From the NCBI GenBank assembly GCA_002238965.1, contig MPNJ01000016.1, positions 1-64,000 on the forward strand: DNA of 64,000 nucleotides, written 5' to 3'. Positions 8,376 through 55,248 of the stretch are shown here, piece by piece. A model generated the notes under the pieces. The model had not been told where the DNA came from. It worked only from the letters and a program-made list of their open reading frames with translations, and made no database searches. The position numbers and the translations under genes are program-made. This DNA comes from Nitrospinae bacterium bin107. Its GTDB lineage: Bacteria > UBA8248. The stretch's first letter is position 1, and the number at the start of each line of letters is the position of its first letter.

Positions 8376-8420
8376 TTATTCACTTGTGGCGAAGGGAAAC
8401 CAGAGGATGTGGAAGACCTG

Positions 8421-8494
8421 TCGCTTCCCTACGCCGGCTCTAACCGGTTCAGGTTCGAAGGGTTTGTTCTCAGCCTGCAAGGCACCCCCAGCGA
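8421..8494 (-). promoter_or_regulatory. TPP riboswitch (THI element)
   Basis: On the minus strand the conserved core is complete: GGGGGTGCC, CTGAGA, ACCCTT, GAACCTGA and the 3' block CCGGCGTAGGGA. It ends about 138 bases before the thiC start codon. Binding of thiamine pyrophosphate is expected to repress thiC; whether at termination or initiation cannot be told by eye. Confidence 0.96.
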
Positions 8495-8508
8495 ACTTTC
8501 AATCTAAA

Positions 8509-47640: not shown

Positions 47641-49194
47641 ATGAGAAAAGAGATGAAACCGGACATGGTTGAACGCATCATGAAATATCCAATGTGGTGC
47701 GGAGCAGGCTGGATTGTTTTACTCGGTGTTGTGGCTTGGCTTTTCCAAAGTTGGCCGGGAGGTTTCTGGGGTTGGCTAGGGGTCTCATGGGAATGGTTGC
47801 GGGAGACGCCGGGTGGTTATGAATCGGCCTCGACGACGATTCGCAATCTCGGCTTGTTCGCCGCCGCGCCTTTTGCTTTATGGTTCGCCTACTGGCGCGC
47901 CAGGGTTGCAGATCGTCAATCCAAAACAGCGCAGGAAAGTCTACTGAACGAACGCTACCAGAAAAGCGCGGAGATGCTCGGTCATCCCGATATCGGGTCT
48001 GTTCGTATCGGCGGCATTCACGCTCTGGCTCGTCTCGCCAGTGAGTCCCCGGAAACTTTCCATCTGCCGGTTATGCAGCTTTTCGCCGCATTTGTCGTAG
48101 ACCGGACGAGAGGAGAAACAGCGGCGCAAGTCGGATTGATTACGGATTCAGAAAAGCCTGGAACCGAAGAAAGACGTAAAGCGGAATCCGAAAGTTCCGG
48201 AAAGGAAGTAGACGATACGGGTGAAGATTATCGACGAAATATCGAGTCCGCATCGGCGGAGTTTTTCGGTCCGTTCTTTGCTGCCGACAGGGAAGTCGGA
48301 CCGGTTCCCGGATTGGCGAAGGATGTGGAAGAGGTCATGAATCAAATCGCACAACGGAGCCAAAAGCAAATTGCTCTGGAGGGCAAGGAAGCATTCAGGA
48401 TGAATCTCGCCGATGCGTCTCTGCATGGGCTTATCTTTCATGAGGCGGATTTTTCTAATTTCGACTTCACAAAAGCGGATTTGCGTCGTGTGCGGGGCTG
48501 GCGGGCTCGCCTCACTAGCGCTGTTCTTCCAGGTGCTGATTTAAGTGGTGCAAATATGAACGGCGCTGATTTTCGCGATGCCGACATGAGGCGCGTGAAC
48601 CTTACTGCAGCTAGGCTAGAGGGTGCGGACATTAGAAATGCCAAGCTTGGTCTCGTTGATTTGGTAGGTCAAAACCTTTGGAAGGGATCCATTTTCCCCT
48701 CGAAACTGGTAGGCACTCTTTTAGGCGGAGCAGACTTGAGAGGAGCCGATTTGGGCAGGGCGGATATGCGCGGAGCGTCATTAGGAGGCGCGAAACTCGA
48801 TACTGCGAATCTTGGCGGAGCGAACTTGAACGGAGCGGATTTGAGGGCAGCAAGTTTGAGAGACGCACATCTTGGCGGAGCCGATCTGGGCAACGCAAAT
48901 CTCGGTGGTTCAGGCGCTGACCTGAGCAGAGCCGACCTAACGGGCGCAAATCTGGCGAGCGCGAACCTCGGCAACGCGAACTTGGCTGGCGCATATCTCA
49001 GTGATGTGAACGTAAGCGGTGCCGATTTTTCCAACGATTGGAGGAGTGGAACCGCATCTCCAGCACACGGCTTGACGCAACAGCAACTCGATCAGACGAC
49101 AGCGGACCCGAGTAACCCGCCCGATTTAGATGGTGTCCTTGACCCCGAAACGGGCGAGCAACTGGAATGGCGCGGAAAACCCCTCAACGAATGA
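47641..49194 (+). CDS. Pentapeptide-repeat membrane protein
   Basis: A 517-residue protein with two N-terminal hydrophobic segments (about residues 18-37 and 68-90), a conserved region RIGGIHALARLASESPETFHLPVMQLFAAFV, and a C-terminal right-handed beta-helix of A(D/N)LxG pentapeptides from about residue 255 to 475. A short tail follows. Similar membrane pentapeptide proteins are widespread and their function is unknown. ATG at 47641 is the first start of the frame; 47653 is a possible alternative. Confidence 0.83.
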   Translation: MRKEMKPDMVERIMKYPMWCGAGWIVLLGVVAWLFQSWPGGFWGWLGVSWEWLRETPGGYESASTTIRNLGLFAAAPFALWFAYWRARVADRQSKTAQESLLNERYQKSAEMLGHPDIGSVRIGGIHALARLASESPETFHLPVMQLFAAFVVDRTRGETAAQVGLITDSEKPGTEERRKAESESSGKEVDDTGEDYRRNIESASAEFFGPFFAADREVGPVPGLAKDVEEVMNQIAQRSQKQIALEGKEAFRMNLADASLHGLIFHEADFSNFDFTKADLRRVRGWRARLTSAVLPGADLSGANMNGADFRDADMRRVNLTAARLEGADIRNAKLGLVDLVGQNLWKGSIFPSKLVGTLLGGADLRGADLGRADMRGASLGGAKLDTANLGGANLNGADLRAASLRDAHLGGADLGNANLGGSGADLSRADLTGANLASANLGNANLAGAYLSDVNVSGADFSNDWRSGTASPAHGLTQQQLDQTTADPSNPPDLDGVLDPETGEQLEWRGKPLNE

Positions 49195-53513: not shown

Positions 53514-53724
53514 TTCTCCTCCTTCAAGTTTTCTTCGGAAATCGGGGTGATTTTTCTCTCGTGCGGGCCAAATAGTCAAGCCGCGCAAGGGTTTTATGGT
53601 TGTTATGGGTGCGCGGCGAATCAGATTTCAGGGTTTTGCATCTCGCACGCCTTCTCTAAATGCCCCAATTCTTCTATGATACAGATGCTCGCCAACTATA
53701 TATTTCATGCGGGAGAAAAGACGA

Positions 53725-53967
53725 ATGAAACTTCACGTTGAATACTGCGAAAAGTGAAACTACGGGCCACGCTATGAGCAGTTGGCTCAGGATCTGAAAA
53801 AACATTTCCCGGACCTGGAAATCGCCGGAAACGAGGATGGAAATTTTCGCGTCGGCTCCTTCGAACTGGTGCTCGATGGTGATCTCTTGTGGTCGAAACT
53901 CGATTCGGGCAATTTCCCCACGGAAGAAGAAGCGGTCAATCTACTCCAAGAGCATGTAAAAGCATGA
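53725..53967 (+). CDS. selW: SelW-like (Rdx family) selenoprotein, UGA read as selenocysteine
   Basis: An 80-residue reading frame starts at ATG 53725 behind GGGAG, runs MKLHVEYCEK, then an in-frame TGA at 53755-53757, and continues NYGPRYEQLAQDL ... to a proper stop at 53965-53967. The TGA falls exactly at the U of a CxxU motif after the first beta strand, as in SelW/Rdx thioredoxin-like selenoproteins. Homology-like sequence continues on both sides in frame (FELVLDGDLLWSK, NFPTEEEAV). Annotation that reads TGA as stop would lose the N-terminus and keep a 61-codon frame from TTG 53782. Its stop overlaps the MOSC gene (ATGA). Confidence 0.85.
53775..53789 (+). promoter_or_regulatory. Candidate bacterial SECIS-type hairpin for selW
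   Basis: TGAGC-AGTTG-GCTCA gives a five-base stem with a G-containing loop, starting 18 bases after the UGA, inside the coding region. Bacterial SECIS elements sit 16-37 bases downstream of the Sec codon with conserved G in the loop. Pairing further down is weak, so this is a position-based call. Confidence 0.5.
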
Positions 53968-54434
53968 CTTTCGAGGGCGAGGTAGTCTCGGTTCACATCG
54001 CCTCGGTGGGCGGCGAACCCATGATGGAGGTCGCCCAGGCGCAGGCTGTCATAGGGTCCGGCCTGGCCGGAGATCGCTACGCCGAGGGCGTGGGAACGTA
54101 TTCCAAGAAGCAGGGGCCCGATCGTGAAGTGACGCTCATCGAAATCGAGGCCATCGAAGCGCTTGTGCGCGACCACGATATCAAACTCGACGTGGGCCAG
54201 AGCAGGCGAAACATCGTGACGCGAGGTGTTCCGCTCAATCACCTGGTGGGGGCGGAATTTCAAGTGGGCGGTGTGAAGATGCGCGGCGTTCGCCTGAACG
54301 AGCCATGCAAATATTTCGAGAATTTACTGGGGATAGAGGGCCTGCACGACGCGCTCATCAATCGCTCGGGACTGAATGCTCAAGTTATAAGCGAGGGTTC
54401 CATTCGCGGAGGCGATGTCGTCAAACGCATCTGA
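53964..54434 (+). CDS. MOSC-domain protein
   Basis: A 156-residue beta-strand-rich protein with the MOSC signature: GLAGDRYAEGVGTYS, DREVTLIEIEAIEAL, SRRNIVTRGVPLNHLVG and a C-terminal LNEPCKYFE with a conserved Cys. MOSC domains are associated with molybdenum-cofactor sulfuration or oxidation; here it is a stand-alone, short version. The start ATG overlaps the stop of the selW-like gene, indicating an operon and likely co-expression. Confidence 0.88.
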   Translation: MTFEGEVVSVHIASVGGEPMMEVAQAQAVIGSGLAGDRYAEGVGTYSKKQGPDREVTLIEIEAIEALVRDHDIKLDVGQSRRNIVTRGVPLNHLVGAEFQVGGVKMRGVRLNEPCKYFENLLGIEGLHDALINRSGLNAQVISEGSIRGGDVVKRI

Positions 54435-54459
54435 ATCAATATTTTCTAGAGATCCTCTA

Positions 54460-55248
54460 ATGTCATTTCCCGTCGTACAGGTGGATGCGTTTACCGATAC
54501 GCCCTTTTCGGGTAATCCGGCCGCTGTATGCATTCTGCCGGCGCAAGTGGACGCAGAGTGGATGCAGCGCGTGGCGGCGGAGATGAATCTCTCTGAAACC
54601 GCTTTCGTGGTGAAACAAGAGGACGGCTACGGCCTGCGCTGGTTCACGCCCTTGAGCGAGGTGGACCTTTGCGGTCACGCTACGCTTGCGAGCGCCCATG
54701 TACTCTGGGAAGGAGGACATCTCGGTTCTGACGAGACGGTCATCTTCCACACGAAAAGCGGGGTTTTGACCTGTGAGCAGAAAGACGAATGGATAGAAAT
54801 GAATTTCCCCATAAGCCGGGAGTCGCCCGCAGCGCCCCCTGACGCCCTGGTGGAGGGCCTCGGCCTTATGCCCCGCTATGTGGGGAAAAGCGAGTTTGAT
54901 TATCTGGTGGAAGCCGATTCCGAGGCGGCGATCAGGTCTCTGGTTCCTGATTTTCAAGTTCTCGAGAACGTTCCCATGCGCGGCTGCATAGTTACGGCGC
55001 GATCCGATGACCCTGAATATGATTTCGTCTCTCGATTTTTCGCTCCAGGGCTGGGTGTGAACGAAGACCCGGTGACGGGTTCCGCCCACTGCTGCCTGGG
55101 GCCATTCTGGGCGGAGCGCCTTAAAAAAGAAGAACTTAACGCTTACCAGGCATCCACGAGAGGCGGGGTGGTGCGTATGAGGATCCTTGGAGACCGCATT
55201 ATTCTGGGAGGCAAGGCCGTGACCGTCCTGCAAGGGGATTTGCTTTAG
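54460..55248 (+). CDS. PhzF-family isomerase/epimerase
   Basis: A 262-residue PhzF/diaminopimelate-epimerase-fold protein. Seen: QVDAFTDTPFSGNPAAVC at the N-terminus, the conserved catalytic Glu in MNLSETAFV, RWFTPLSEVDLCGHATLA, and the C-terminal DPVTGSAHC. The reaction is not predictable from sequence; most PhzF-like proteins are uncharacterised. ATG at 54460 begins directly at the conserved strand; a 15-residue upstream extension is not needed. Confidence 0.88.
   Translation: MSFPVVQVDAFTDTPFSGNPAAVCILPAQVDAEWMQRVAAEMNLSETAFVVKQEDGYGLRWFTPLSEVDLCGHATLASAHVLWEGGHLGSDETVIFHTKSGVLTCEQKDEWIEMNFPISRESPAAPPDALVEGLGLMPRYVGKSEFDYLVEADSEAAIRSLVPDFQVLENVPMRGCIVTARSDDPEYDFVSRFFAPGLGVNEDPVTGSAHCCLGPFWAERLKKEELNAYQASTRGGVVRMRILGDRIILGGKAVTVLQGDLL

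What the first reader, a model, noticed from the sequence alone, without database searches (positions are those of the whole stretch)
53725..53967. Hidden SelW-like selenoprotein with in-frame UGA
A complete 80-residue frame contains one TGA (53755-53757) exactly at the selenocysteine position of a CxxU motif, with in-frame SelW-like sequence on both sides, a GGGAG ribosome site before the ATG and a hairpin starting 18 bases after the TGA. Standard gene calling starts at an internal TTG or misses it. This implies a selenocysteine insertion system (SelA, SelB, SelC, SelD) in the organism.
Basis: partly seen in the sequence, partly recalled or inferred. Interest (0 to 1): 0.85.

Follow-up and report, generated by a model that had tools for sequence, protein, structure and literature searches.

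The report
SelW-like selenoprotein gene, UGA encodes selenocysteine
The gene is real: a small redox protein of a known family (SelW-like) whose in-frame UGA is almost certainly read as selenocysteine, in a Nitrospinota-type bacterium that carries the full selenocysteine machinery; it is a clean but ordinary new member of a well-described family.

Summary
Both the observation and the interpretation hold. The frame 53725-53964 (+), stop 53965-53967, encodes MKLHVEYCEK-U-NYGPRYEQ... and matches Pfam Rdx (2e-18) and NCBIfam CXXU_selWTH (1e-21). The same genome has tRNA-Sec, selA, selB and selD; selD itself carries an in-frame TGA at its catalytic Cys position, followed by a very strong hairpin. 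All 16 Rdx genes found in 18 genomes of the phylum have TGA at this site; more distant homologues have TGA or Cys there. A hairpin with an apical loop 22 nt after the UGA and G at loop position 2 fits the published bacterial SECIS model except perhaps for energy (-6 kcal/mol alone; cut-off -7.5). Its codons are frozen even at synonymous positions across the family, and different stems occur at the same spacing in other lineages. The predicted fold is that of SelW/Rdx proteins. SelW-like selenoproteins are among the most abundant known marine bacterial selenoproteins: a new member of a known kind. Side findings: a conserved downstream MOSC-PhzF pair, and one relative with UxxU. Protein-level incorporation was not tested.

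The parts
53711..53715 (+). GGGAG, likely ribosome-binding site, 9 nt before the ATG
   Evidence: Read directly; purine-rich GGAG-type sites precede the ATG in the genus relatives.
53725..53967 (+). selW-like selenoprotein gene (80 aa with Sec, stop TGA 53965-53967)
   Evidence: Rdx E 2.1e-18 and TIGR02174 E 1.2e-21; SelW/Rdx fold; purifying selection on both sides of the TGA.
53755..53757 (+). In-frame UGA codon 11, Sec of the CxxU motif (C8-E-K-U11)
   Evidence: TGA in all 16 phylum homologues; Cys codon in Cys homologues.
53775..53789 (+). Putative bacterial SECIS hairpin TGAGC-AGTTG-GCTCA; apical loop 22 nt after the UGA, G at loop position 2
   Evidence: Codons GAG CAG TTG GCT identical in 16/16 family genes except one TTA; reduced synonymous divergence; different stems at the same 22-nt spacing in other lineages.
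53964..54434 (+). MOSC-domain protein gene; its ATG overlaps the selW stop (ATGA)
   Evidence: Pfam MOSC E 4e-11; overlap kept in the genus; MOSC also follows selW in two other genera.
54415..55248 (+). PhzF-like protein gene, third gene of the cluster
   Evidence: Pfam PhzC-PhzF E 3e-66; same order in L037.

Best explanation
This is a functional SelW-like (Rdx family) selenoprotein gene. SelD makes selenophosphate and SelA converts Ser-tRNA-Sec to Sec-tRNA-Sec. SelB binds the hairpin 18-32 nt past the UGA and delivers Sec-tRNA-Sec to the UGA at codon 11. The product is a small thioredoxin-like protein with a C8-x-x-U11 redox pair that most likely cycles between a selenol/thiol and a selenenylsulfide. 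Shown here by sequence: the frame, the family, the machinery genes, conservation of UGA and hairpin, the predicted fold. Inferred from established biology: decoding, selenenylsulfide chemistry and redox role. Not known: the physiological substrate.
For: Rdx/CXXU_selWTH match across the TGA. Full Sec machinery in the same genome. selD is a second selenoprotein gene with a strong hairpin (-24 kcal/mol, z -4.0) right after its TGA, and that TGA aligns with the Cys of solved selenophosphate synthetases. TGA at the site in all 16 phylum Rdx genes and within 74 of 89 matches over 386 genomes. Cys at the site in the Cys-type homologues read. Synonymous codons frozen in the hairpin: GAG 16/16, CAG 16/16, TTG 15/16, GCT 16/16; family pS 0.35 there against 0.62-0.84 in flanking stretches. 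Loop position constant at 22 nt with different stems in other lineages. Fold matches SelW-related crystal structures, TM about 0.8. The hairpin meets the published bSECIS criteria for loop size, stem length, loop G and spacing (PMC13188914).
Against: No protein-level or expression evidence. The hairpin alone is only -6.0 kcal/mol and the MFE of the longer region in this very sequence pairs differently, so by the published -7.5 kcal/mol criterion the specific hairpin is weak, although the whole 42-nt region reaches -10.5. In L026, L036, L042 and a few others the simple longest-stem search picks a competing stem.
Confidence: 0.96

Rival explanations
1. UGA is a true stop; the downstream part is a separate TTG-started 61-aa ORF or a pseudogene remnant.
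For: A TTG-started ORF 53782-53967 exists.
Against: Conserved sequence spans the TGA from the ATG on; all 16 phylum genes have exactly TGA and never TAA or TAG there; pN/pS 0.04 upstream and 0.13 downstream in the genus; the truncated ORF would lack the whole active site.
Confidence: 0.02
2. UGA is read as another amino acid: Trp by a reassigned code, or non-specific near-cognate read-through, not Sec.
For: None found; an in-frame TGA alone would not tell.
Against: Neighbouring reading frames end at TGA as a normal stop, including selW itself at 53965-53967; homologues have Cys, not Trp, at the site; a dedicated Sec machinery is present.
Confidence: 0.01
3. A sequencing or assembly error turned a Cys TGC/TGT into TGA.
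For: The genome is a multi-contig assembly (60 contigs).
Against: The TGA recurs in all 16 phylum Rdx genes and in public contigs of separate isolates L045-L051.
Confidence: 0.003

Closest known systems
Bacterial SelW-like (SELENOW-like, Pfam Rdx PF10262) selenoprotein, CxxU
   Same: CxxU motif, size, Rdx profile match, downstream SECIS, thioredoxin-like fold. Listed as a prokaryotic family with motif CxxU in PMC13188914 and PMC9312934; [quoted passage not shown]
   Different: Only in details: a somewhat longer middle segment (EIAGNEDGNFR) than the distant bacterial homologues, and the hairpin sequence TGAGC-AGTTG-GCTCA is particular to this bacterial family among the sequences seen.
Cys-type Rdx proteins (e.g. 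PDB 2fa8, 2p0g, 3dex, 2obk)
   Same: Same fold (TM 0.75-0.81) and same active-site position.
   Different: Cys where this gene has UGA; 21-28% identity in the structural alignments.
Mouse SelW (PDB 2npb)
   Same: Same fold (TM 0.72) and same CxxU position.
   Different: Eukaryotic SECIS lies in the 3' UTR; here it is in the coding region just after the UGA.

Membership tests
SelW-like selenoprotein (Rdx, CxxU) | Match to the Rdx / SelT-SelW-SelH profile above the curated cut-off | tested here: met
   PF10262 66.7 bits (cut-off 22.6), TIGR02174 76.8 bits (cut-off 34.2)
SelW-like selenoprotein (Rdx, CxxU) | CxxU with U encoded by in-frame UGA, Cys in other homologues | tested here: met
   C8-E-K-U11; homologues with TGA or Cys codon
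SelW-like selenoprotein (Rdx, CxxU) | Thioredoxin-like Rdx fold | tested here: met
   pLDDT 89, best PDB matches are SelW-related proteins
SelW-like selenoprotein (Rdx, CxxU) | Selenium at residue 11 of the expressed protein | not testable with these tools
   Needs mass spectrometry or 75Se labelling
Bacterial SECIS (bSECIS model, PMC13188914 Fig. 2A) | 3-9 nt apical loop and 4-16 bp stem | tested here: met
   5-nt loop, 5 bp stem
Bacterial SECIS (bSECIS model, PMC13188914 Fig. 2A) | G in one of the first two loop positions | tested here: met
   Loop AGUUG
Bacterial SECIS (bSECIS model, PMC13188914 Fig. 2A) | 16-37 nt from UGA to apical loop | tested here: met
   22 nt
Bacterial SECIS (bSECIS model, PMC13188914 Fig. 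2A) | MFE <= -7.5 kcal/mol | tested here: inconclusive
   Hairpin alone -6.0; 42-nt region -10.5 but with a different MFE pairing
Sec-decoding organism | selA, selB, selC, selD in the genome | tested here: met

The most novel reading that the evidence does not exclude
In this genus the selW stop overlaps the start of a MOSC-domain gene (ATGA). If MOSC translation is coupled to ribosomes that complete selW, then decoding the UGA at codon 11 would gate MOSC (and perhaps PhzF) expression by selenium supply: a selenocysteine-dependent translational switch. The evidence neither supports nor excludes it beyond the conserved overlap.
Probability: 0.08. Interest if true: 0.45.

Novelty: new member of a known kind. 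Interest (0 to 1): 0.2.

Why it matters
It corrects a gene that ordinary gene calling truncates or misses and shows that this Nitrospinota-type lineage is Sec-decoding, with at least two selenoproteins (SelW-like, SelD). A search of the held paper library for 'Nitrospinota' with 'selenoprotein' found nothing, but the family and mechanism are well known. The recurrent selW-MOSC-phzF neighbourhood gives a modest lead on the unknown function of bacterial SelW-like proteins.

Tried and rejected
Folding energy as proof of the SECIS: rejected, since z-scores of longer windows are -0.6 to -1.7; conservation was used instead. A synonymous-recoding control gave only modest support per sequence (3.5% of recodings fold as well for this gene; 0.8-33% for others). 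A scan of the window for other TGA read-through genes by codon usage gave no convincing second candidate (a crude method). A search for more UxxU cases in 85 + 40 genomes of two other phyla found none. A profile scan of viral contigs could not run, because the alignment lacks a conserved stretch. Literature on SelW with MOSC gave nothing relevant.

Full report
Observation. The sequence is as described. ATG 53725 opens a frame whose eleventh codon is TGA (53755-53757) and which closes at TGA 53965-53967. GGGAG lies at 53711-53715. A plain ORF list shows only a 61-aa TTG ORF from 53782. Read with TGA as Sec, the product is MKLHVEYCEKUNYGPRYEQLAQDLKKHFPDLEIAGNEDGNFRVGSFELVLDGDLLWSKLDSGNFPTEEEAVNLLQEHVKA. 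It matches Pfam Rdx over residues 3-75 (E 2.1e-18) and NCBIfam TIGR02174 CXXU_selWTH (E 1.2e-21).

Machinery. In the same assembly (4.37 Mb, 96% complete) tRNA-Sec is on contig C32 (75.9 bits against a gathering score of 47; ARAGORN calls SeC, anticodon tca). selA (576 bits) and selB (385.7 bits) lie next to each other on C14, and selD (333.9 bits) is on C32. selD has one in-frame TGA at KAGG-U-GSK; in the alignments to solved selenide, water dikinases it falls on their Cys. The 48 nt from that TGA fold at -24 kcal/mol, z -4.0, with an apical loop GGA. So the genome has two clear selenoprotein genes.

Homologues. All 16 Rdx genes found in the 18 held genomes of the phylum have TGA at the site. 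Over 386 genomes, 74 of 89 matches contain TGA and 15 do not. The Cys-type sequences that were read have CxxC in the same alignment column, e.g. YCSECNY in L067. Several public relatives carry Nitrospinota or Nitrospinae titles (L046-L049, L051), which is the basis for naming the lineage. selA is present in most same-family genomes that have this gene; G004, G014, G015 and G016 have no full-length hit, three of them being 67-79% complete.

Hairpin. TGAGC-AGTTG-GCTCA at 53775-53789 has its loop 22 nt after the UGA. The codons GAG CAG TTG GCT are identical in 16 of 16 family genes except one TTA, while synonymous divergence in the family is 0.35 here against 0.62 downstream and 0.84 upstream. 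In other lineages quite different stems (CCGCC/GGCGG, GCTGCA/TGCAGC, CGTC/GACG) sit at the same spacing, with loops such as AGTTT, GGTCT and AGGCT. This satisfies the published bSECIS criteria of stem, loop, loop G and spacing (PMC13188914). The energy criterion is not clearly met by the hairpin alone (-6.0), and in this sequence the MFE of a longer window is another pairing. I regard conservation as the stronger evidence.

Fold and function. AlphaFold2 on 19 sequences gives pLDDT 89 with order beta-alpha-beta-beta-beta-alpha, and the top PDB matches are SelW-related proteins from Bordetella, Agrobacterium, Streptomyces, Vibrio, Pseudomonas and mouse SelW. A thiol/selenol redox role is inferred from the CxxU motif; the function of bacterial SelW-like proteins is unknown in the literature read (PMC1088965, PMC13188914).

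Neighbourhood. The stop overlaps the ATG of a MOSC-domain gene (53964-54434), followed by a PhzF-like gene (54415-55248). The overlap is kept in the genus, and selW-MOSC-PhzF also occurs in another genus (L037); MOSC follows in a third (L035), and a PhzF-like frame comes directly after selW in a fourth (L036, judged by sequence likeness). Coupling to selenium supply is possible but untested.

Known status. [quoted passage not shown] it is listed in current reviews. The finding is correct and ordinary in kind.

Noticed in passing
L044 1486-1722 (-), genome G012, sister genus in the same family: SelW homologue with two in-frame TGAs 9 nt apart (MKMHVEYUQRUNYK..., UxxU). The hairpin loop is 22 nt after the second and 31 nt after the first, both inside the 16-37 nt range. 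It is the only two-TGA case among 74 TGA-type matches, and none was seen in 125 genomes of two other phyla. The reviews read list SELENOW-like only as CxxU. Real diselenide-type site or base error: undecided.
   Followed up: partly
53964-55248: MOSC and PhzF-like genes follow selW in several genera; the ATGA overlap suggests an operon with translational coupling.
   Followed up: partly
L018 1471 onward (genome contig C32): selD is itself a selenoprotein gene with TGA at codon 20 and a very strong downstream hairpin (z -4.0).
   Followed up: yes
8409-8499 (-): TPP riboswitch (Rfam RF00059, 72 bits).
   Followed up: no
47641-49194 (+): 517-aa protein with a long run of pentapeptide-like repeats (A-D/N-L-x-G), judged by eye.
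   Followed up: no
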